From contig NZ_AFNU02000005.1 in the NCBI RefSeq assembly GCF_000215935.2, positions 62,001-126,000 on the forward strand: a stretch of 64,000 nucleotides of DNA. The letters run 5' to 3'. A program made the position numbers and the translations under genes. Each line of letters starts with the position of its first letter. The stretch's first letter is position 1. This document shows, in pieces, positions 5,323-20,940 of the stretch. This stretch comes from Haloplasma contractile SSD-17B. GTDB lineage: Bacteria > Bacillota_I > Bacilli_A > Haloplasmatales > Haloplasmataceae. The notes beneath the pieces were generated by a model, which saw nothing but the letters and a program-made list of their open reading frames with translations, was not told the origin of the DNA and searched no databases.

Positions 5323-6558
5323 TTAACTAAGAAATAACCAACCATAGATTACTCCGTATATTAAAGCACCTATTATAACAAATACTGGGTGTACTTTAAA
5401 CTTTTTAAGTAACACTAAACTTAATAACGCCATGATAAGGGTTTGAATAACGTTTAGACCACGTGCAGCATCGTAGAAGAAATTAAAGGCTAACATTCCA
5501 AGTAACACTGCAATAGTAGGTTTAACATAATTTGATAACCGTTTTACCCTAGGAGAATCTTTATGTTTAGTTAATAAATTTAACAAAATAATCATTGCAA
5601 TTAATGACGGTGCCACCATTGCAAAAATACCAACTGACATACCAATAAGACTACCGATTACTCCATCTACAGCTCCTACGTCAAAACCAACATATCCCGC
5701 TATCTTAGTTGCTGTAACACCCGGTAATGTATTACCCAGTCCAATGATTTCAGCAAATCCCTCATCTGATAACCATCCATACCGTTCAACTACTTCTGCT
5801 TTAAATAATGGGATTGAAGCAGGTCCTCCACCAAATCCAATGATTCCTGGGATAAAGAAGGCGAGAAATATTTTGACATAGTCATTTCCACCTGCTAGAC
5901 CAACTGTTCCTAGAGTAGGTACAGACATCACATCGAACTTAAACAGTAAGCCAACTGTTAATAACATTACGAAAATTGCACTCCCTACAAAGAGCGCCTT
6001 GCGGTCTTCCTTTGGTCTGAAGAAAGCAAATAGTAATAAAGGAAGAATGACCATCCCTGGATGGAAATTAAGTGGTATGAGTAATATCCCACTTAATACG
6101 ATCAATAACATCGTGACCGGTATTCCCACGGTTTTTTCCGACTTTTTGTAAAACTGCCATGTTAATAATGACATTAAAATACCAACAACAGGTAACACTG
6201 CTAATTTTAACCCAATAATTCTTGGGTCTTCACTATTTAATGAATCAAGTGTTAGTAATAAAGAAATCATTAACATTAATGAAGGCAAAATAATCCCTGC
6301 TAAGCCACTTAATATACCAAGTATTCCTTTGACTTTATAGCCTACGTAACCAGCCATTTTTGTTTGCATCGGTCCAGGTAACATATGCATAATAGATAAC
6401 ATATCTGAAAATTCATCTTCAGTCATCCATTTAAAGCGATCCACGACCTCTTTATGAAACAATGGAATGGTAGCAGATCCGCCACCATATCCAAACACTC
6501 CAATTTTAACAAATGCAATAAACAATTGATGTAATTTATTATTCTTGTTTTTTACCAT
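5323..6558 (-). CDS. chrA: Chromate transporter, fused two-domain ChrA type
   Basis: 411 residues and about ten hydrophobic segments. Two homologous CHR domains are in tandem: FGYGGGSATIPLF...LPGPMQTKMAGYVGYK in the first half and FGGGPASIPLF...LPGVTATKIAGYVGFD in the second. This is the long, fused form of the CHR family, which exports chromate or similar oxyanions through the cytoplasmic membrane. The start overlaps the stop of the gamma-glutamyltransferase gene by seven bases, so the two are translated together. In Bacillus subtilis the split halves ywrA and ywrB lie beside the GGT-like gene ywrD, so this pairing is a conserved neighbourhood (established knowledge). The real substrate in this pairing is uncertain and may not be chromate. 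Confidence 0.88.
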   Translation of the reverse strand: MVKNKNNKLHQLFIAFVKIGVFGYGGGSATIPLFHKEVVDRFKWMTEDEFSDMLSIMHMLPGPMQTKMAGYVGYKVKGILGILSGLAGIILPSLMLMISLLLTLDSLNSEDPRIIGLKLAVLPVVGILMSLLTWQFYKKSEKTVGIPVTMLLIVLSGILLIPLNFHPGMVILPLLLFAFFRPKEDRKALFVGSAIFVMLLTVGLLFKFDVMSVPTLGTVGLAGGNDYVKIFLAFFIPGIIGFGGGPASIPLFKAEVVERYGWLSDEGFAEIIGLGNTLPGVTATKIAGYVGFDVGAVDGVIGSLIGMSVGIFAMVAPSLIAMIILLNLLTKHKDSPRVKRLSNYVKPTIAVLLGMLAFNFFYDAARGLNVIQTLIMALLSLVLLKKFKVHPVFVIIGALIYGVIYGWLFLS

Positions 6559-8165
6559 GAAGCAATTGCACCATCCGTTCTAGATTCTGTTCCACCAACA
6601 AGCACACCTGTATCTGGATTCCTCCAAATAATCTGTCCTCGTCCGAAACTTCCTGAATTATGTTCTACCTTCATCATGTGTCCCTTTAATGCTAAAGCAG
6701 ATACAAGATGATTTGCCATACTTTGTTCTACTGTTACTAGTTTATCCTTCATCCATTGCCATCGTGGTGAATCAAGTGCAGCCTGTGGATTTAGACCAAA
6801 GTCGACCACATTCATAATCACTTGCATGTGACCTTGTGGTTGCATAAATCCACCCATAACACCAAATGGTCCCACTGGTTTGTTATTTTTCGTTAAAAAA
6901 CCAGGGATAATTGTGTGATAGGGTCTCTTCTCTGGCTCTAAGGCATTATCGTGTTCTTTATCCAGTGTAAAATTATGACCACGATTTTGTAGTCCGATTC
7001 CAGTACCTGGAACAACTAATCCAGATCCGAATCCCATATAATTACTTTGTATGAAGGATACCATGTTCCCTTCACCATCGGCAGTCGCTAAGTAAACCGT
7101 TCCCCCTTTAGGTGGTTCACCAGCGGTTGGCATTAACGCCTCCTCACCGATTAAATCCCTTCGTTCTTTTGCATAATCTTCTGATAAAATACTATCAACC
7201 GATGCATTCATAAAGTTTGGATCTGTAATGTATTTTTGACCGTCAGCAAAAGCTAACTTCATTGATTCTATTTGTTTGTGAAGTGTATCTACAGTATCTT
7301 TTGCTTTAAACTCAAATCCTTTTGCAATGTTTAATGCTTGTAAAGCAATTAGTCCCTGTCCATTAGGTGGAATTTCCCAGACATCATATCCACGATAATT
7401 GACTGAAATTGGATCAACCCATTCTGGTTGGTAATTCTCTAAATCTTCTTTTCGAATGAAGCCATTATATTGTTTTGAGAATGCATCAATCTTATCGGCA
7501 AGTTCTCCCTTGTAGAATGCATCCCCCCCTGTTTCTGCGATTAAGCGTAATGTTTCTGCATGTCCTTTAGACTTCCAAATATCTCCTGCTTTTGGAAGTC
7601 TACCTCCTGGTATAAAGGTTTCAAACCAATGCTTGAATTCATCCCCTTTTAATACTTTAGAATATCCCTTATATGCTCGTTCCCAGTAATACGCGAGTGT
7701 TGGTGATAATGGATAGCCCTCCTCAGCATAACGAATAGCAGGCTCTAACACCTCAGTCAATGGTAGTTTCCCAAACTTTTTAGAAAGTTCTGCCCAAGCC
7801 GATGGTACCCCAGGAACTGTTACGGGTACAAATCCAAACGTCGGAATCTTCTCATGACCTAATTCCTTAACCTTATCAATACTTATTGATTTAGGCGAAT
7901 ACCCACTTGCATTAAGACCATGAAGCTCGTCCTTCGTCCATACAAGTGCGAACGCATCTCCACCAATTCCGTTTGAAGTTGGTTCTACAACCGTCAGACA
8001 AGCTGCAGTAGCAATTGCTGCATCGATTGCATTCCCTCCCTTTTTTAATATATCAAGTCCTGCCTGTGCAGCTAATGGCTGAGATGTTGCTACCATTCCA
8101 TTTTTAGCATACGTCGCAGTACGCTTTGCAGGATATGGATAATAATGTGCATCGTTATTAAACAT
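6552..8165 (-). CDS. Gamma-glutamyltransferase family (YwrD-like) Ntn-hydrolase
   Basis: 537 residues, normal length for the family, which is made as a precursor and cuts itself before a threonine that then acts as nucleophile. The expected cut is between G355 and T356 in PKGGTVYLATADGEGN. The substrate loop GFGSGLVVPGTGIGLQNRG follows. No signal peptide is seen, so the enzyme is probably cytoplasmic, unlike exported Ggt. Family members hydrolyse gamma-glutamyl amides or cephalosporin-like acyl groups. It leads a two-gene operon with the fused chromate transporter (overlap seven bases). Start ATG follows GGGAGGAG. The YwrD assignment rests on gene order and lack of an export signal. Confidence 0.88.
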   Translation of the reverse strand: MFNNDAHYYPYPAKRTATYAKNGMVATSQPLAAQAGLDILKKGGNAIDAAIATAACLTVVEPTSNGIGGDAFALVWTKDELHGLNASGYSPKSISIDKVKELGHEKIPTFGFVPVTVPGVPSAWAELSKKFGKLPLTEVLEPAIRYAEEGYPLSPTLAYYWERAYKGYSKVLKGDEFKHWFETFIPGGRLPKAGDIWKSKGHAETLRLIAETGGDAFYKGELADKIDAFSKQYNGFIRKEDLENYQPEWVDPISVNYRGYDVWEIPPNGQGLIALQALNIAKGFEFKAKDTVDTLHKQIESMKLAFADGQKYITDPNFMNASVDSILSEDYAKERRDLIGEEALMPTAGEPPKGGTVYLATADGEGNMVSFIQSNYMGFGSGLVVPGTGIGLQNRGHNFTLDKEHDNALEPEKRPYHTIIPGFLTKNNKPVGPFGVMGGFMQPQGHMQVIMNVVDFGLNPQAALDSPRWQWMKDKLVTVEQSMANHLVSALALKGHMMKVEHNSGSFGRGQIIWRNPDTGVLVGGTESRTDGAIASW

Positions 8166-10931: not shown

Positions 10932-12128
10932 ATGATTAATAAACGTATGACAATTGAGGAAATTGTAACAAAACATCCAAATCTGATTGAAACGTTTGAA
11001 TCAAAAGGATTTAAGGGACTTAATAATAAAGCAATCTTAAAACAAGTTGGTAGGTTACCACTTGAAACTGTGTTAACGAATAAAAAAATGAACGTTGATG
11101 CCTTTATAGCATTATTAAATGAATCATTTGCCAAAGACCAAGTCACAGATGTGACACTTATGGAAAAAGAAAAAAAGGAAAACGCAATAAATATATCAGG
11201 TTTATTACCTTGTCCTGTTCGTTTACCTCTTCTTGAAATCTTAAATGAACATAAAAATATTGACAATATAAACTATGAACTTAAGGCGGCAGCGGAAGGA
11301 TTAGACTGGATTAAAGAAGAGGTCATGAATGCTAAAACTGAGGATGATTTGGCAGATGTCTTTATCTCAGCTGGTTTTGACTTATTCTTTGAAGAAGATT
11401 TAATGAAAAAGTTCAAGAACCAAAATGTATTTAAGGATTATACAGGATTAGATGACTATAACACAGACTTTGAGAATAAAGATATTTCACTAAAAGATCC
11501 TAGTGGTGACTATTCAATGCTTGCCGTTGTACCTGCCGTATTCCTTGTCAATAAAAAGGAACTCGGAGATAGACCCGCTCCAAAAACATGGAAAGATTTA
11601 CTTGATCCAATGTATGAAAAATCTATTAGTTTACCAGTTAGTGACTTTGACTTATTTAATGCAATCTTAATTCATTTATATAAATATTATGGTGAAGAAG
11701 CTGTTGAAAAATTAGGTAAAGGACTTGTAGAAAGTATGCATCCTGCAGAGATGGTTAAATCGGATAAACGCAAGACAAAGAAAAAACCAGCAATCACGAT
11801 TATGCCTTACTTCTTCACTCGTATGGCTCTTCCTGGTGGCGTAATGGAACCAGTATGGCCGGAAGATGGTGCTATCATATCACCAATCTTTATGTTAACG
11901 AAAAAAGATAAGAAAGAGCAAGTTGAATCAATCGCTAAACTATTTGCATCCAAAGAGGTTGGAGAAATATTTGCTCATAAAGGATTATTTCCATGTGTAA
12001 ACAAGGAAGTTGATAACCGAATAGAAGGTAAAACATTCAAATGGATTGGATGGGATTACATCAATAACAACAACATCGGTGAAATCTTAAGAAATTGTAT
12101 GGAGTTGTTTGAGAAAGGAATGAATTAA
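10932..12128 (+). CDS. Cytosolic ABC substrate-binding-like protein with N-terminal DUF1858-like domain
   Basis: 398 residues. Residues 1-65 (MTIEEIVTKHPNLIETFESKG and onward) form a small helical domain like DUF1858. The remainder is a type II periplasmic-binding-protein fold of the Fe3+/spermidine class: LAVVPAVFLVNKKELGDRPAPKTWKDLLDP is the family's hinge signature, and DGAIISPIFMLTKKD follows. There is no signal peptide and no lipobox, so it is predicted to stay in the cytoplasm, which is odd for this fold. GAGGTGG precedes the start. It lies between the NifU gene and the GTPase gene (one-base gap). It may bind a metal complex or anion inside the cell. No permease gene is near. Confidence 0.78.
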   Translation: MINKRMTIEEIVTKHPNLIETFESKGFKGLNNKAILKQVGRLPLETVLTNKKMNVDAFIALLNESFAKDQVTDVTLMEKEKKENAINISGLLPCPVRLPLLEILNEHKNIDNINYELKAAAEGLDWIKEEVMNAKTEDDLADVFISAGFDLFFEEDLMKKFKNQNVFKDYTGLDDYNTDFENKDISLKDPSGDYSMLAVVPAVFLVNKKELGDRPAPKTWKDLLDPMYEKSISLPVSDFDLFNAILIHLYKYYGEEAVEKLGKGLVESMHPAEMVKSDKRKTKKKPAITIMPYFFTRMALPGGVMEPVWPEDGAIISPIFMLTKKDKKEQVESIAKLFASKEVGEIFAHKGLFPCVNKEVDNRIEGKTFKWIGWDYINNNNIGEILRNCMELFEKGMN

Positions 12129-12129
12129 T

Positions 12130-12822
12130 ATGGATTTAATTACAGTATCAGGTCCACCGTCATCGGGAAAAACATCGGTGATAATTAAGACCATTGAAAG
12201 TTTTTTACAACGTGGAGTTAAAGTCGGAGTTGTTAAATTCGACTGTCTATATACAGATGATGATGAATTATATGAGAAGATTGGCGTACCTGTTAAAAAA
12301 GGATTATCAGGTTCACTCTGCCCTGACCACTACTTTGTATCGAACATAGAAGAAGTAGTTGAATGGGGAAATAAAAAAGGATTAGATTTATTGATAACGG
12401 AAAGTGCCGGACTATGTAACAGATGTTCACCTTATATTAAGGATATAAAAGCAATCTGTGTTATTGATAATCTGAGCGGAATCAATACTCCGAAAAAAAT
12501 CGGTCCTATGTTAAAGAGTGCTGACATGGTTGTTATTACGAAAGGTGACATCGTATCACAAGCTGAACGTGAAGTATTTGCAATGAAAGTTCAAAGTGTT
12601 AACCCTAAAGCTACGATTATGCACATTAATGGATTGAATGGACAAGGGGCTTATGAGTTATCGACCCTAATGTATGATAAAGATCAAAATATTATTACAC
12701 TAGAAGGTAGGCGTCTACGTTTCTCTATGCCTTCTGCTCTATGCTCTTATTGTTTAGGAGAAACTCGTATTGGTAAAGCCCATCAAATGGGTAACGTCAG
12801 AAAAATAGATTTGAGTGATTAA
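12130..12822 (+). CDS. G3E-like P-loop GTPase with Cys pairs (HypB/CobW relative)
   Basis: 230 residues. Walker A is GPPSSGKTS (8-16). Walker B runs into a cysteine pair, LLITESAGLCNRC (C96, C99), a layout like the metal-binding region of HypB-type metallochaperones. TKGD (137-140) stands for the NKxD base-recognition motif. A second pair CSYC (C205, C208) is followed by GETRIGKAHQMGN. C39 and C64 add further thiols. The family uses GTP to insert Ni, Co, Zn or other metals, so a metal or cluster delivery role is inferred. It starts one base after the previous stop and ends one base before the ABC ATPase start, so the genes are tightly coupled. Confidence 0.78.
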   Translation: MDLITVSGPPSSGKTSVIIKTIESFLQRGVKVGVVKFDCLYTDDDELYEKIGVPVKKGLSGSLCPDHYFVSNIEEVVEWGNKKGLDLLITESAGLCNRCSPYIKDIKAICVIDNLSGINTPKKIGPMLKSADMVVITKGDIVSQAEREVFAMKVQSVNPKATIMHINGLNGQGAYELSTLMYDKDQNIITLEGRRLRFSMPSALCSYCLGETRIGKAHQMGNVRKIDLSD

Positions 12823-12823
12823 T

Positions 12824-13843
12824 ATGCCAAGCATAAAACAATTAAAAGAATTAACCATTAATGAGTTATTCGATAAATATCCGTATAGTAAAGACTTTAT
12901 GTTAGATCATCATATTCCATTTGAAGGAAAAGAAAATCTAATCGTAGATGAAGTACTCGATACTATCGATGAAGAACATGCAGAAGATCAAGCGATTGAT
13001 GTGGAAAAATTTAAAGAACAATTGATTGAGTATATCAACCTAATGTTATCCTTTTTAGGAGAAGAAGATGAAAGTCAGACTGAAGTTACTATATTACCAG
13101 GTTTTTATAAAGATGGATCACGTGAAAACTATGATCGGCTTACAATTAAAAGTGGAGAAATAATTTGTATCGTTGGACCCACTGGTAGTGGAAAGAGTCG
13201 TCTCTTAGCAGACATCGAGTGGGCTGCGAATTATGATACGCCAACTAAACGTACCGTATTAATTAATGGTAATACACTAGATACAAAAGAACGCTTTTCT
13301 TCTAGTAATAAGCTAGTGGCTCAATTATCACAAAATATGAACTTTGTTATGGATTTAACAGTAGAGGAATTCTTAGACTTACATGCCACAAGTCGTCTAG
13401 TTGAGAACAAAGAAGATGTCATAATAAGTATCTTTAACAAAGCAAACGAACTTGCCGGAGAACAGTTCAAGTTAACGACTCCAATCACGAGTTTAAGTGG
13501 TGGTCAGTCTCGCGCCTTAATGATTGCAGATACAGCTATTCTTTCTAAGTCACCAATTGTTCTAATTGATGAAATTGAAAATGCCGGTATTGACCGAGAA
13601 AAGGCTTTAGATTTATTAGTTTCTGAAGATAAAATCGTATTAATGGCGACTCATGACCCTATACTTGCCTTAATGGGTGATAAGCGTATCATTATAAATA
13701 ATGGTGGAATTGAAAAAATAGTAGATACCACTGAGGATGAATTGAACATATTATCAAAACTAAAGCGTCTAGATCGCATTATGTTAACTATGCGAAACAA
13801 GCTGCGCTATGGTGAACAATTAGAATTTGAGGAGGAAATTTAA
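12824..13843 (+). CDS. ABC-type ATPase with N-terminal DUF1858-like domain, no permease partner
   Basis: 339 residues from the ATG at 12824; a GTG three codons earlier overlaps the upstream stop and is less likely. Residues 1-75 (LTINELFDKYPYSKDFMLDHH and onward) are a helical domain that resembles the one in the neighbouring substrate-binding-like protein. Walker A is GPTGSGKS (118-125), signature LSGGQ (224-228), Walker B VLIDE (246-250), H-loop H277. All catalytic motifs are intact. No transmembrane gene is in the operon, so it may work as a soluble ATPase, as in Fe-S or cofactor assembly, and not in transport. The start of the Cys-rich gene follows its stop by one base. Confidence 0.82.
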   Translation: MPSIKQLKELTINELFDKYPYSKDFMLDHHIPFEGKENLIVDEVLDTIDEEHAEDQAIDVEKFKEQLIEYINLMLSFLGEEDESQTEVTILPGFYKDGSRENYDRLTIKSGEIICIVGPTGSGKSRLLADIEWAANYDTPTKRTVLINGNTLDTKERFSSSNKLVAQLSQNMNFVMDLTVEEFLDLHATSRLVENKEDVIISIFNKANELAGEQFKLTTPITSLSGGQSRALMIADTAILSKSPIVLIDEIENAGIDREKALDLLVSEDKIVLMATHDPILALMGDKRIIINNGGIEKIVDTTEDELNILSKLKRLDRIMLTMRNKLRYGEQLEFEEEI

Positions 13844-13844
13844 T

Positions 13845-14084
13845 ATGCATGAAGGATGTAGTGGATCATTTGACAATGGACGTCAAATGGTAGACAAAGT
13901 TAGAATGATGGGATTTAGTGAAGGTGTCCTACCAATACCACATGAAATTAAGTGTGAATGTGGCGAGACATTTGAAATGGAATTCTTTGAAAGCAACTGT
14001 CCAAACTGTAACATGGTATATGGTGTGACTCCTTGTAGTGCTCATGACCCAAGTAAGGTTATGCCTGCAGGAATTGATTACTAA
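13845..14084 (+). CDS. Small Cys-rich zinc-ribbon-like protein, last gene of nifU operon
   Basis: 79 residues from the ATG at 13845. The strong GAGGAGG at 13829-13835 fixes this start; an in-frame codon at 13827 overlaps the ribosome site and is rejected. Cysteines are C5, C37, C39, C52, C55 and C64. The segment CECGETFEMEFFESNCPNC reads like a knuckle-type zinc or Fe-S site, and MHEGCSG at the front plus TPCSAHDP near the end look conserved. No membrane segment. I do not know a named function. As part of the operon it may be a metal carrier or a substrate for the GTPase and ATPase. Confidence 0.75.
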   Translation: MHEGCSGSFDNGRQMVDKVRMMGFSEGVLPIPHEIKCECGETFEMEFFESNCPNCNMVYGVTPCSAHDPSKVMPAGIDY

Positions 14085-16486: not shown

Positions 16487-17341
16487 TCATTTATTAACAG
16501 ATAGTCCTGTCATTTCTTCGCTTAATTTCCATAGTTTTTTTGCGGCTTCCTGGTCATACGAATTCTCAGAGGACTGAACCTGCTTTTTCCGAATAAAATA
16601 CTTACCACTTACTCCTTCTATCTCATCAGACATCGCTAAGTAGATTGCGGTTTCTGCTCCTTTTTCAGGAGTGTTAAAAAACGGTTTTAATATCCCTGTT
16701 ATAAACTTACCGAACCCTGTATCTCTGTTTATGCCTATACTTGTAGCGACTGCACCTGGATGAAGACAGTTTACTGTAACGTTAGTATCCTTTAGGCGAC
16801 TTGCAAGTTCATACGTAAACATAATATTTGCAAGTTTCGACTGAGCGTAGGCTCTAAATATTCGATAATTTTTTGTAAGGTTGACATCATCAAAATAGAT
16901 TTTACCTGACTTATGTGCACCTGATGACACATTAACAACTCTTGATGGTTGACTCGAAATTAATAAGTCCAGTAATAAGTTTGTTAGTAAAAAATGACCT
17001 AGGTGATTGACACCGAACTGCAGTTCATACCCATCGACCGTTTCATGACGCCCTGGTAAAATCACACCCGCGTTATTTATTAGAACATCCAGGCGATCGT
17101 ACCTCTTTTTAAATTCTGTCACAAAGTCGTGTATACTCTGCCTAGAACCCAAATCACATAACATAAACTTAACCTTGTTATTTTTAGTAATTTTTTTAAC
17201 TTCATTAAAAGCCTCTTTGCCTCTTGATTGATTTCTACACAACATTACCACATTGGCTCCTGTCTTAGCTACTTCTATAGTGGTAGCCTTACCCATCCCT
17301 GAGTTGGCACCTGTTATAATGACGACACTATTTTCATTCAT
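16487..17341 (-). CDS. Short-chain dehydrogenase/reductase, retinol dehydrogenase-like
   Basis: 284 residues with a full classical SDR set: TGANSGMGKA cofactor loop (11-20), CDLGSR, NNAGV, and the catalytic S...YAQSKLAN (Tyr/Lys). The long form with VDGYELQFGVNHLGHFLLTNLLL resembles retinol/protochlorophyllide reductase-like SDRs. The Arg after the Gly loop (CRNQSRG) suggests NADP(H). AAAGGAG precedes the ATG. It is the first gene of a unit with the GNAT gene behind it. Substrate unknown. Confidence 0.87.
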   Translation of the reverse strand: MNENSVVIITGANSGMGKATTIEVAKTGANVVMLCRNQSRGKEAFNEVKKITKNNKVKFMLCDLGSRQSIHDFVTEFKKRYDRLDVLINNAGVILPGRHETVDGYELQFGVNHLGHFLLTNLLLDLLISSQPSRVVNVSSGAHKSGKIYFDDVNLTKNYRIFRAYAQSKLANIMFTYELASRLKDTNVTVNCLHPGAVATSIGINRDTGFGKFITGILKPFFNTPEKGAETAIYLAMSDEIEGVSGKYFIRKKQVQSSENSYDQEAAKKLWKLSEEMTGLSVNK

Positions 17342-17798
17342 AACGTTCTCCTTTTTTAGACTATATACCTAATCATGTAGAGTCGTACTCCACTATTTAT
17401 TAAGTTTAGTATATCACTATTACTCCTTCTTTTCATTAATGGAATCCGTTTTTTATATAAATTCATTATTAGCATAGCAGTTCTAAAAAACATATTCTTA
17501 ACATTAGGACTCATAGCTGTTATTCCTATGCACTATTAAACATGTCCGTAATGATTACTTTGTTTATTATCTAGTGACACAATCAAGATGAAAATAAATT
17601 ATAGATTGTAATTCAACAATGATAAAACTAAAACATGTATTAAATGATTATATAAACAATACCATCATGATCGAAAAGAATAAAATCAAAAAATGACCTC
17701 CGTAGAATACAGAGGTCATTTATTAAAAAGTTCATTATATTTAGTTTTATTAAGAGTTTAGTAAAACTTCGAAGGATTTTAATCGATTTAATCGTTAC
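17342..17798. other. Intergenic stretch with flavodoxin terminator
   Basis: No gene seen. A hairpin ATGACCTC...GAGGTCAT at 17692-17720, flanked by A- and T-rich runs, lies about 80 bases after the flavodoxin stop on the minus strand and is probably its terminator. Confidence 0.55.
17692..17720. terminator. Hairpin terminator downstream of flavodoxin gene
   Basis: Stem AAATGACCTC / GAGGTCATTT with an 11-base loop. A TTTGATTTTA run follows on the minus strand. Confidence 0.6.
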
Positions 17799-18230
17799 TT
17801 AAGCGCTAGCTAATTGTTCTCCGAGTTCCTTACATTTTATCAAATCATCTTCTTCAGGTGTTAAATTAACAATAAGACCCTCAGTCACTAGACTAGCTCC
17901 GTATTCTTTCATTTGATCTTCAAAATCTTGCATCCATTCACCGTCTCCCCAATCGTATGAACCAAACAATACGACAGGTTTATTGTCAAAATCAACTTCC
18001 TCTAGTGAATCGACGAACGGTTGCATAAACGCTTCCTCTAAGTTTTCTGCTCCCATAGAAGGACATCCTAATGCAACTAAATCTGCACTAATTACATCCT
18101 CGCTTGTTGCTTCTTCTACGCTAAGAAGTTCTACCTGATCTCCGTTTACCTTAGCACCTTCTGCTACTGATTGTGCCATCATTTCAGTATTACCTGTACC
18201 ACTCCAGTAAATCACAACTATATTTTTCAT
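17799..18230 (-). CDS. Flavodoxin
   Basis: 143 residues, typical short-chain flavodoxin. The FMN phosphate loop is SGTGNTEMMAQ (10-20). GCPSMGAENLEE (55-66) and FGSYDWGDGEWM (88-99) are the isoalloxazine-contact loops with Trp/Tyr. It carries one or two electrons in the cytoplasm and replaces ferredoxin when iron is short. GGAGG lies before the ATG. A perfect Fur box sits 219 bases upstream, between this gene and the divergent GATE-domain gene, so iron repression of one or both is likely (inference). Confidence 0.93.
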   Translation of the reverse strand: MKNIVVIYWSGTGNTEMMAQSVAEGAKVNGDQVELLSVEEATSEDVISADLVALGCPSMGAENLEEAFMQPFVDSLEEVDFDNKPVVLFGSYDWGDGEWMQDFEDQMKEYGASLVTEGLIVNLTPEEDDLIKCKELGEQLASA

Positions 18231-18448
18231 ATATATTCCTCCAAACGTATTTTAAACGATCTTATATTGACATTGATTACACTTATTCAGGAGACTATTG
18301 AATAAAGAAACCTAATTTTCCCTAATATATTAGTTTAGTTTTAGTAGTAGTAAAACTTAATATTAATAAAAACGTTTAATCGAAACGGACATGAATATGT
18401 TTGGTTACATATTACTTTCAAAATCTCCTGAAAAAGCACTTATGTAAA

Positions 18449-18463
18449 TGATAATGATTATCA
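18449..18463. promoter_or_regulatory. Fur box (perfect 7-1-7)
   Basis: TGATAATGATTATCA is an exact match to the Bacillus Fur 7-1-7 consensus TGATAATnATTATCA, and the flanks extend the symmetry (TATGTA...TACATA). It is 139 bases before the GATE-protein start and 219 bases before the divergent flavodoxin start. PerR boxes differ at the outer positions (TTATAAT), so Fur is preferred. Confidence 0.85.
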
Positions 18464-18601
18464 CTACATAAATTAGTTTACCATATCTAGAATATTATGT
18501 AAAATTATATGATAATAAACATTCATGGTACTATTAATTAACTTGTAACACCATCATTTAACTGATAAAATAATTGGTATGAACTATTGAGGGAGGAACC
18601 T

Positions 18602-19609
18602 ATGGATCAAAAAAATAAACTATTTAAACAAGCCTTACAAAATATTATTAAAAATACATATAAACATGCTAAAAAGACGATCCTGTTTATGTTAAAAATA
18701 ATTATTCCAATTACATTTGGAGTCATGTTATTACAATATCTTGATTTAATTAAATATGTTACATTCATCTTTGAACCACTCATGAAATACTTTGGTCTAT
18801 CAGGAGAAGCAGCACTTGTTTTAATCACATCTAATCTCATTAATATATACGGTGGCCTGGCTGTTATGGCATCATTAACCTTTTCCGTAAAGGAAGTTAC
18901 AATACTAGGGGTTATGATCCTATTCTCCCATTCGTTGATTGTTGAAGTTGCCATAATTAAGGGACTTAACATCTCGATCAAAAAGCAGTTATTTATACGG
19001 ATTGTTTCTGCGCTCATATCTGGAGTTATCTTAAACGTATTAATTGGAGACCATTATTCTGAAATAGCGAATAATCGTGTTACCATTTCAAAAGAGATAC
19101 CACCTTTTTCACTCGAGAGTTTTCCTATATTTTTTCATTGGTTTAAAACACTAATGGTTGATTATTTTCTTAATATTGTGAATACTACGTTTAAATTAGT
19201 ATGGATTATTACAGCTGTCTTATTTGGACTCGAAGTTTTAAAGGAGTTTAATGTCCTAGACAAACTCAATAACATTCTATTTTATTTTACAAAGCATCTC
19301 GGTGTGTCTAAGTCTGCTACGTCATCATTATTGATTGGACTCTTCATTGGAATCACATACGGTGCAGGAGCTATTTTAATTCACTATAAAGAAGGTAAAA
19401 TGAATAAAAAGGATGTCTTGCTAGTAACAACCTTTCTACTGTTGTGTCACGCTATTGTTGAAGATGTATTCTTATTTATTCAAGTAGGTGCCGTTCCTTG
19501 GATCTTAATTACCTATAAGATTGCCTTTGCAATTATTGTGACATTTATCTATAATCTAATATTATCGAGAAAATCAGATTTACAGAAAGGATTTAATTCC
19601 CAACAATAA
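18602..19609 (+). CDS. Nucleoside-recognition/GATE-domain membrane protein, likely Fur-controlled
   Basis: 335 residues from the ATG at 18602; GGGAGGAA at 18591 sets this start over an in-frame TTG inside the ribosome site. About eight membrane helices form two similar halves: PLMKYFGLSGEAALVLITSNLINIYGGLA and KHLGVSKSATSSLLIGLFIGITYGAGA. This doubled pattern is the GATE (nucleoside recognition) fold, found in concentrative nucleoside carriers, SpmA/SpmB and the FeoB core. The Fur box upstream suggests a role in iron or siderophore movement and not in nucleosides, but this is inferred from regulation only. Single gene with its own terminator. Confidence 0.75.
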   Translation: MDQKNKLFKQALQNIIKNTYKHAKKTILFMLKIIIPITFGVMLLQYLDLIKYVTFIFEPLMKYFGLSGEAALVLITSNLINIYGGLAVMASLTFSVKEVTILGVMILFSHSLIVEVAIIKGLNISIKKQLFIRIVSALISGVILNVLIGDHYSEIANNRVTISKEIPPFSLESFPIFFHWFKTLMVDYFLNIVNTTFKLVWIITAVLFGLEVLKEFNVLDKLNNILFYFTKHLGVSKSATSSLLIGLFIGITYGAGAILIHYKEGKMNKKDVLLVTTFLLLCHAIVEDVFLFIQVGAVPWILITYKIAFAIIVTFIYNLILSRKSDLQKGFNSQQ

Positions 19610-19632
19610 CCTGTAAAAGAGATAAGCAACTA

Positions 19633-19672
19633 GAGAAAATCATTTCATTTCATGTGATGTTTTTCTTTTTTT
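19633..19672 (+). terminator. Terminator after GATE-domain gene
   Basis: AGAAAATCAT / ATGTTTTTCT stem with a long loop, then TTTTTTT. Confidence 0.65.
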
Positions 19673-19848
19673 CACTCTATTTATACGTCGAATTCTTCTA
19701 ATATTAACCGCTTGTTACTCATTATTATAAAGATCTGTAAAATGTCTTGTAAAAATTTTAACTGCAAGCTGATCAAAACCTTCATATATTGTATGATTTA
19801 TATAATTAAGTGAAAAACTAATTAAATAGATTAAAAGGAGGTTTTCCG

Positions 19849-20028
19849 ATGGATGCAAGACGAGCAGAGGAAATTATTGCTTCTCGTGATACGATAAGTG
19901 TAGTATATAATGGTTTTGATATTTACTTGGAAAAAGTAAATAATAAACAAGGAACAGCATCAATTCACTTTATTGATCAACCCGATAAAAAGCAAATCGT
20001 ACCTTTAAATGATTTAATTGAATACTAA
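19849..20028 (+). CDS. sspH: Small acid-soluble spore protein, H type
   Basis: 59 residues, MDARRAEEIIASRDTISVVY and onward, ending NDLIEY. The layout R-A-x-E-I/L, then V-x-Y-N-G-x-x-I-Y-I/L, then a short acidic C-terminal helix matches SspH-like minor spore proteins. AAAGGAGG lies eight bases before the ATG. A strong terminator follows 22 bases after the stop. H-type SASPs are made in the forespore in Bacillus and relatives. This indicates sporulation ability or ancestry. Family is clear by pattern; no database search was run. Confidence 0.82.
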   Translation: MDARRAEEIIASRDTISVVYNGFDIYLEKVNNKQGTASIHFIDQPDKKQIVPLNDLIEY

Positions 20029-20050
20029 CACTACTTTTCATTATAAAAAT

Positions 20051-20089
20051 AAAAGGATCAGTTATTTTTAGAATAACTGATCCTTTTTT
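20051..20089 (+). terminator. Terminator after sspH
   Basis: AAAAGGATCAGTTAT / ATAACTGATCCTTTTTT, seven-base loop, near-perfect 15-bp stem. Confidence 0.92.
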
Positions 20090-20268
20090 AGATTAATATG
20101 CCTTTACCTTAAACTAGGTATTAAGCATACTTTCCATGTGAGAACACATCAATACATAATTCAGTACTCATTTCAGAATAGATTACGAAGAGCAATTTAA
20201 ATAAGCATAGATCTCAATTTTGCTATTAACATATAACACGTACTTATATTAAGCTTTATCCAAATAAA

Positions 20269-20302
20269 AAACAACACTTGTAGTATTTATTTGTGTTGTT
20301 TT
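20269..20302 (-). terminator. Terminator after YczE-like gene
   Basis: Minus strand AACAACAC / GTGTTGTT with a 14-base loop, then TTTTATTT, nine bases after the stop at 20311. Confidence 0.7.
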
Positions 20303-20310
20303 CAACCTAT

Positions 20311-20940
20311 CTATTTATTTGCTAAACGTTTAACATCTATTTCCTTGATAAATTTCATATAAAATCCAATTCCAGGGCCTATTACAAATGTAATAATTAT
20401 TGTCCCCAGTGAAAGTGCTCCAACTCCAATTCCAGCAGCAAAACCAAATATCAAAGCAGTTACCGCAAATGAAGTTTCTATACTAGTTTTTATAAGTGCA
20501 ACAGAACCTTTTGTCTTTTCTACTAAGATAACAAGCAAGTTATCCATAGGGCTCAGTGGTAACTTGGACTGAATAATAAATGTTACTCCTAGAGGTAATA
20601 ATACTACTGCACTTCCAAAGAAAAAGACTTGTATACCAAGTTCTGTGGTTTTCGAAATAATTTCTAACCATATATTGACACCAGCACTAACTACACCTGT
20701 TAACAAATACCCAACAATATATATTTTCCTTGGTTTTAAAATCATTGTGATAATATATACCATAAAGATTGCTATATACATAGAAGTTCCTGGTTTTATA
20801 TTGACTAATTTTGATAAATTATAATATAGTGCATCAAATGCTCCTGCACCTAGTTCCGATCGTAATGATAGCGATATTCCCAAAGACAATATTGCTGATC
20901 CGATTAAGTAATACGTTAATCTCTTAAATAGTTTGTCCAT
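20311..20940 (-). CDS. YczE/YyaS-type integral membrane protein
   Basis: 209 residues, five or six hydrophobic helices. The opening GSAILSLGISLSLRSELGAGAFDALYYNLSKL and the later PLSPMDNLLVILVEK fit the YczE family (repeats with an L-G-x-x-x-x-D motif; D36 and D133 are the equivalent acids). In Bacillus YczE affects surfactin/lipopeptide production, but molecular function is unknown. AAGGAG precedes the ATG. The broken PadR regulator gene lies about 200 bases upstream on the same strand; it may once have controlled this gene. Confidence 0.72.
   Translation of the reverse strand: MDKLFKRLTYYLIGSAILSLGISLSLRSELGAGAFDALYYNLSKLVNIKPGTSMYIAIFMVYIITMILKPRKIYIVGYLLTGVVSAGVNIWLEIISKTTELGIQVFFFGSAVVLLPLGVTFIIQSKLPLSPMDNLLVILVEKTKGSVALIKTSIETSFAVTALIFGFAAGIGVGALSLGTIIITFVIGPGIGFYMKFIKEIDVKRLANK

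What the first reader, a model, noticed from the sequence alone, without database searches (positions are those of the whole stretch)
17799..19609. Perfect Fur box between flavodoxin and a GATE-domain membrane protein
TGATAATGATTATCA fits the Fur consensus at every position. Flavodoxin is a known iron-starvation substitute. The divergent GATE-domain protein, from a fold shared by FeoB and nucleoside carriers, would be iron-regulated too, which hints at a new iron or metal transport role.
Basis: partly seen in the sequence, partly recalled or inferred. Interest (0 to 1): 0.52.

Follow-up and report, generated by a model that had tools for sequence, protein, structure and literature searches.

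The report
Iron-control site by a flavodoxin gene
A bacterium related to Haloplasma carries a real iron-regulator (Fur) binding site between a flavodoxin gene and a two-repeat Gate-domain membrane protein; the site most likely controls the flavodoxin, an ordinary iron-saving switch, while relatives of the membrane protein point to amino-acid-type substrates rather than iron.

Summary
TGATAATGATTATCA at 18449-18463 is a perfect 7-1-7 Fur box between a divergent flavodoxin and a double-Gate membrane protein. The host genome has 4 exact copies at 3 loci (0.22 expected); the other two loci are iron ABC-transporter operons, so the box belongs to a working Fur regulon.

Flavodoxin is a standard Fur target elsewhere. 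The iron role of the Gate protein is not supported: its core promoter, conserved in both close homologues (which lack the box), lies 79 bp downstream of the box; none of 14 other homologue loci has a box with 3 or fewer mismatches; homologues sit beside Lrp/AsnC regulators, glutamate racemase, poly-gamma-glutamate synthase or, across an insertion sequence, glutamate mutase. The host already has two FeoB, one with its own near-perfect box.

Open: the flavodoxin start is farther from the box (218 bp) than the Gate start (138 bp), and flavodoxin homologues also lack boxes (0 of 29), so which gene is controlled is unproven. Invariant His/Glu residues in both Gate repeats leave metal transport possible. 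Verdict: real, mostly ordinary; the Gate family is the better lead.

The parts
18449..18463 (.). Fur box, perfect 7-1-7 inverted repeat TGATAATGATTATCA
18440..18446 (.). left arm TTATGTA of a flanking inverted repeat around the Fur box (partner 18465-18471); meaning unknown
   Evidence: read from sequence; not seen at the other sites listed
18465..18471 (.). right arm TACATAA of the flanking inverted repeat
17799..18230 (-). short-chain flavodoxin, 143 aa; most likely Fur target
   Evidence: PF00258 E 1.7e-21; TIGR01753 157.6 bits over cut-off 123
18475..18503 (-). candidate flavodoxin promoter TTTACA-N17-TAAACT (TG before the second hexamer); the Fur box would cover about +5 to +19 of it; weak, consensus only
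   Evidence: 8 promoter-like sites found, 3.8 expected by shuffling
18543..18571 (+). conserved core promoter of the Gate gene, TTGTAA-N17-TAAAAT with extended -10; starts 79 bp after the end of the Fur box
   Evidence: same architecture 52-59 bp before the start codon in 3 of 3 full-length family members
18602..19609 (+). double-Gate membrane protein, 335 aa, two homologous halves with invariant H110/E115 and H283/E287/D288
   Evidence: PF07670; N versus C half hhalign 93.6%, E 2e-7; 10-sequence alignment

Best explanation
The site is an ordinary Fur operator of a spore-gene-bearing Haloplasmataceae bacterium. With Fe2+ bound, Fur (the product syntenic with spoIIM and xerD) binds the 15-bp box and blocks transcription toward the flavodoxin; when iron is scarce Fur leaves and flavodoxin replaces ferredoxin. 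The divergent Gate gene mainly uses its own conserved promoter 79 bp downstream of the box, is at most weakly affected by Fur, and encodes a secondary carrier for an amino-acid-type substrate (glutamate, gamma-glutamyl or beta-aspartyl compounds are the best guess) rather than for iron. Shown: the box, its excess over chance, the company it keeps in the genome, the conserved Gate promoter, the absence of boxes at homologues, the neighbour genes. Inferred: Fur binding, which gene is repressed, and the substrate.
For: Exact boxes lie only at this locus and at two iron operons: Peripla_BP_2/FecCD-type ABC and SBP_bac_6/FbpABC-type. One-mismatch boxes precede feoAB, a ZIP transporter and superoxide dismutase. 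A Fur protein is present in the order spoIIM-fur-xerD (that B. subtilis has the same order is recalled). Flavodoxin fldX carries a Fur box and is induced in low iron in C. difficile (PMC6311696, passages); fldA is among the most induced genes in Bacteroidetes (PMC10434189, passages). Gate promoter conserved in 3 of 3 with or without the box. No box with 3 or fewer mismatches within 300 bp at 14 of 14 other homologue loci. Lrp/AsnC regulator divergent and adjacent in 4 of 8 fetched plasmid loci. Split pairs adjoin pgsB-pgsC (G423), murI plus nearby pgsBC (G218), murI (G322). G001: glutamate mutase and methylaspartate ammonia-lyase upstream, across an insertion sequence. E. coli yjiH-yjiG-iadA.
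Against: The flavodoxin start codon is 218 bp from the box, farther than at any other site assigned here (12-163 bp), and the Gate start is nearer (138 bp). No strong flavodoxin promoter was found; the candidate scores 9 of 12 and several such sites are expected by chance. Flavodoxin homologues in the class (36-52% identity) also lack boxes: 0 of 29 with one mismatch or fewer, 1 of 29 with two. A weak promoter-like site on the Gate side (TTTACC-N17-TAAAAT, 18477-18505) starts 13 bp after the box. The amino-acid reading rests on neighbours only; own-genome neighbours of the Gate gene give no such hint except a gamma-glutamyltransferase 10 kb away, pgsB is absent from the own genome, and Gate/pgsB co-occurrence over 51 genomes is not significant (3 shared of 7 and 9, P 0.095).
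Confidence: 0.5

Rival explanations
1. One Fur dimer (or a pair on the extended inverted repeat) represses both divergent genes, so the Gate protein is made in iron limitation along with flavodoxin, although its substrate is not iron (for example an organic acid, amino acid or chelator precursor).
For: Central position of the box; Gate start only 138 bp away, inside the 12-163 bp range of other assigned sites; weak promoter-like site 18477-18505 starting 13 bp after the box; flanking 7-bp inverted repeat.
Against: Conserved core Gate promoter lies 79 bp past the box, about -120 to the box centre; both close homologues have the promoter but no box.
Confidence: 0.28
2. The Gate protein is a Fur-controlled iron or other divalent metal carrier, a GTPase-free relative of the FeoB membrane part.
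For: Shared Gate family with FeoB (N-half versus own FeoB2, hhalign 44.6%, E 2e-4); invariant His and Glu in both repeats, H110/E115 and H283/E287/D288, in 10 of 10 aligned sequences, not seen in the E. coli YjiG sequence; Fur box nearby.
Against: No Fur box at 14 of 14 other homologue loci; neighbours are Lrp/AsnC, murI, pgsB, metH, namZ rather than iron genes; the host already has two FeoB, one with a one-mismatch Fur box.
Confidence: 0.07
3. The box serves only the Gate gene and the flavodoxin is constitutive.
For: Flavodoxin start is 218 bp away with no good promoter between; 29 of 29 flavodoxin homologues lack a box with one mismatch or fewer.
Against: Gate promoter conserved without box in relatives; flavodoxins are standard iron-regulated genes elsewhere.
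Confidence: 0.1
4. The box is a chance palindrome.
For: One exact match of the backward control exists in the genome.
Against: About 2e-5 to 5e-5 expected in this 371-bp gap; the remaining exact copies all sit at iron operons.
Confidence: 0.03

Closest known systems
Fur-regulated flavodoxin fldX of Clostridioides difficile and C. acetobutylicum
   Same: Flavodoxin gene with a TGATAAT-type Fur box upstream; induced in low iron and in a fur mutant in C. difficile (PMC6311696, passages read).
   Different: Here the box is 218 bp from the start codon and shared with a divergent gene; iron response untested.
Gate (nucleoside recognition, PF07670) proteins: E. coli YjiG/YjiH, SpmA/SpmB, YlbJ, FeoB membrane part
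   Same: PF07670 match; N half matches the YjiG model NF007811 (29.8 bits, under its cut-off of 111) and E. coli YjiG (hhalign 92.3%); two-repeat design as in FeoB.
   Different: Single fused 335-aa protein without GTPase; conserved His/Glu in both halves that are not seen in YjiG; the own genome has separate SpmA-like, SpmB-like and YlbJ proteins and two FeoB (SpmA/SpmB named by context and Gate match, no NCBIfam hit).
Fused 'nucleoside recognition domain-containing protein' of Proteobacteria and Bacteroidota
   Same: tblastn matches of 22-29% identity over 81-99% of the query in 10 of 11 matching plasmid records (the eleventh, Acetoanaerobium, is a split pair at 38%); same invariant residues.
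   Different: Divergent from Lrp/AsnC regulators or in smpB-metH order, with no Fur box.

Membership tests
Fur operator (Gram-positive 7-1-7 box) | 15-bp 7-1-7 inverted repeat TGATAATnATTATCA | tested here: met
   0 mismatches; genome-wide excess
Fur operator (Gram-positive 7-1-7 box) | host encodes Fur and the same box precedes iron-uptake genes | tested here: met
   (Fur model NF051892 126.6 bits, below its cut-off of 220)
Fur operator (Gram-positive 7-1-7 box) | Fur binds it and iron changes transcription | not testable with these tools
   needs binding assay or RNA data
Fur-regulated flavodoxin | flavodoxin of the short-chain family | tested here: met
   TIGR01753 157.6 bits, cut-off 123
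Fur-regulated flavodoxin | Fur box overlapping the flavodoxin promoter | tested here: inconclusive
   218 bp from start; only a weak candidate promoter beside the box
Fur-regulated flavodoxin | box conserved at homologous flavodoxin genes | tested here: not met
   0 of 29 class homologues with one mismatch or fewer, (30 of 49 listed matches became loci, the window itself one of them)
Gate domain (PF07670) membrane protein | match over Pfam gathering score | tested here: met
   47.4 bits, cut-off 29.6
FeoB ferrous iron transporter | N-terminal GTPase (FeoB_N) and FeoB_C with two Gate domains | tested here: not met
   no FeoB_N or FeoB_C in the 335-aa protein; found in own FeoB2
YjiG (NF007811) | score over the curated cut-off of 111 bits | tested here: not met
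   29.8 bits over the N half only
SpmA/SpmB spore maturation pair | orthology to spmA/spmB | tested here: not met
   own genome has a separate SpmA/SpmB-like pair next to a carboxypeptidase-like gene; halves do not align with it (hhalign under 1%)

The most novel reading that the evidence does not exclude
The double-Gate protein is a GTPase-free metal carrier: two Gate repeats, each giving one His and one Glu (H110/E115 and H283/E287-D288) to a central metal site, drawn into the Fur regulon beside flavodoxin in this lineage. The residues are invariant across Bacilli, Bacteroidota and Proteobacteria (10 of 10 sequences), so a conserved ligand site is likely even if the ligand is not a metal.
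Probability: 0.07. Interest if true: 0.55.

Novelty: new member of a known kind. Interest (0 to 1): 0.25.

Why it matters
As a regulatory site it adds an expected member (flavodoxin) to the Fur regulon of a little-studied spore-gene-bearing family. The wider value is in the Gate family: a fused two-repeat carrier of unknown function with invariant His/Glu residues, next to Lrp/AsnC regulators in Proteobacteria and next to glutamate or poly-gamma-glutamate genes in Bacilli. That gives a concrete substrate class to test for a domain often named 'nucleoside recognition' without assay, and it warns against reading a shared divergent Fur box as evidence of iron transport.

Tried and rejected
Sequence search of solved structures with the family profile found nothing at E up to 1. 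Rfam on 17000-20400 gave only two sub-threshold matches, so no known riboswitch or sRNA in the gap; no intrinsic terminator was found in 18180-18640, so a Fur-controlled sRNA gene in the gap is not supported.

Spore-maturation reading (sspH follows the Gate gene; SpmA/SpmB are Gate proteins): rejected, since a separate SpmA/SpmB-like pair and ylbJ exist and the halves do not align with the pair.

Gate/pgsB co-occurrence over 51 genomes: not significant (P 0.095); only the physical linkage, where both exist (3 of 3: G001, G218, G423), is notable.

Literature: five term combinations on Gate/Fur/YjiH/SpmA/Lrp returned no characterised iron role for this family in the listings; subscription papers are mostly not held. 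PMC12393781 and PMC13160365 (passages) list YjiH-family polymorphisms in gallium-evolution experiments, in the first paper in control and gallium-selected populations alike, so not used. PMC10434189 (passages) lists a nucleoside-recognition protein of Prevotella intermedia 2.1-fold down in low iron, opposite to Fur derepression; whether it belongs to this family was not checked.

Full report
What is there. Window 18449-18463 reads TGATAATGATTATCA, an exact 7-1-7 Fur box, in the 371-bp gap between a flavodoxin on the minus strand (17799-18230; PF00258, TIGR01753) and a Gate-domain protein on the plus strand (ATG 18602, stop ending at 19609; PF07670 over its cut-off, two stretches). The box lies 138 bp before the Gate start codon and 218 bp before the flavodoxin start codon.

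Is it more than chance. A first-order Markov model expects 0.22 exact matches in the 3.40-Mb genome and 2e-5 to 5e-5 in this gap. The genome has 4 exact places at 3 loci and 16 with one mismatch or fewer, against 1 and 5 for the motif read backwards; the Markov expectation for one mismatch or fewer is 7.6. Two exact boxes precede an SBP_bac_6/FbpABC-type operon and one (plus a one-mismatch copy) a Peripla_BP_2/FecCD-type operon. Of the 16 places, 8 are these, the window, feoAB, a ZIP transporter and superoxide dismutase; the other 8 lie inside reading frames or next to genes I could not tie to iron. All 7 same-family genomes show more motif than control. A Fur protein lies between spoIIM and xerD. 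The site is therefore very likely a real Fur operator; binding itself is inferred.

Which gene it controls. For the Gate gene, the two full-length family homologues (59-63% identical; G001 and G004, named Haloplasma contractile MAG and uncultured Haloplasmataceae) share its core promoter, TTGTA[ACT]-N17-TAAAAT with extended -10, 52-59 bp before the start codon in 3 of 3. In the window it begins 79 bp beyond the box, so the box centre lies near -120. Neither relative has a box with 2 or fewer mismatches in the 1.5 kb fetched upstream. Across 14 other homologue loci (2 close, 4 split pairs in Bacilli, 8 fetched plasmid loci) the best match within 300 bp has 4-6 mismatches; several of these genes lie inside operons, and 3 of the 11 plasmid hits were not fetched. 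For the flavodoxin, known biology favours it: fldX has a Fur box and rises in low iron in C. difficile (PMC6311696, passages). But its start is farther from the box than at other assigned sites (12-163 bp), only weak promoter candidates exist, and 0 of 29 class homologues have a box with one mismatch or fewer. Same-family relatives show no flavodoxin with E below 1e-12, and only one weak match to a longer protein at 27% identity, so flavodoxin plus box looks lineage-specific. I favour flavodoxin, without proof.

What the Gate protein is. Its halves are homologous to each other (hhalign 93.6%, E 2e-7). In G218, G322, G407 and G423 the halves are separate adjacent genes. Fused relatives occur in Vibrio, Halomonas, Rhizobium, Nitratireductor, Ponticoccus and Parabacteroides, and a split pair in Acetoanaerobium. 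In 10 of 10 aligned full-length sequences H110, E115, R133, H283, E287 and D288 are invariant. E. coli YjiG is related (92.3%) but its sequence shows no such His/Glu pair. It is not FeoB (no FeoB_N or FeoB_C), and the host has two FeoB, one with a one-mismatch box.

Neighbours. An Lrp/AsnC regulator (PF01037) is divergent and adjacent in 4 of 8 fetched plasmid loci: Ponticoccus, Halomonas and two Vibrio. Parabacteroides has smpB-Gate-metH. G423 has pgsB-pgsC directly after the pair; G218 has murI before it and fumarase and pgsB-pgsC after it; G322 has murI before it; G407 has namZ before it. In G001 an insertion sequence separates the Gate gene from a glutamate mutase/methylaspartate ammonia-lyase cluster, with gamma-glutamyltransferase and pgsB further on. 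E. coli yjiH-yjiG-iadA fits the same theme. These are associations; G004, Rhizobium and Nitratireductor show no such neighbour. Best guess: a carrier for acidic amino acids or their gamma/beta-linked peptides.

Verdict. Metal transport remains possible through the invariant His/Glu residues, at about 7%.

Noticed in passing
window 10932-14084: Operon of a DUF1858 plus SBP_bac_6 protein, a HypB/UreG-like GTPase, an ABC-type ATPase and a small Cys-rich protein with a weak HypA match; no permease ORF in the listed set and no obvious signal peptide on the binding-like protein. Possibly a cytoplasmic metallocofactor insertion system.
   Followed up: no
window 19849-20028; L045, L043, L047: Spore genes in a genome grouped with Haloplasmataceae: sspH in the window, an SpmA/SpmB-like pair, ylbJ, spoIIM.
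   Followed up: partly
L064 1249-2804 (genome G001): An exact Fur box lies between feoA (12 bp away) and a divergent gene that by eye resembles ylbJ (128 bp away): another Gate-type gene beside a Fur box that more plainly serves its neighbour.
   Followed up: partly
window 18440-18471: The Fur box is framed by a 7-bp inverted repeat TTATGTA/TACATAA, off by one base from perfect symmetry, not seen at the other sites compared.
   Followed up: no
window 5323-8165: Gamma-glutamyltransferase (TIGR00066, 364 bits) beside a membrane protein resembling chromate transporters (recalled, not searched), 10 kb from the Gate gene.
   Followed up: no
L104, L108, L052: Recurrent cluster of pgsB (with pgsC in L108 and L052) and, in L104 and L108, AstE_AspA-type lipoprotein-like peptidases; the split Gate pair lies in it in G218 and G423.
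   Followed up: partly
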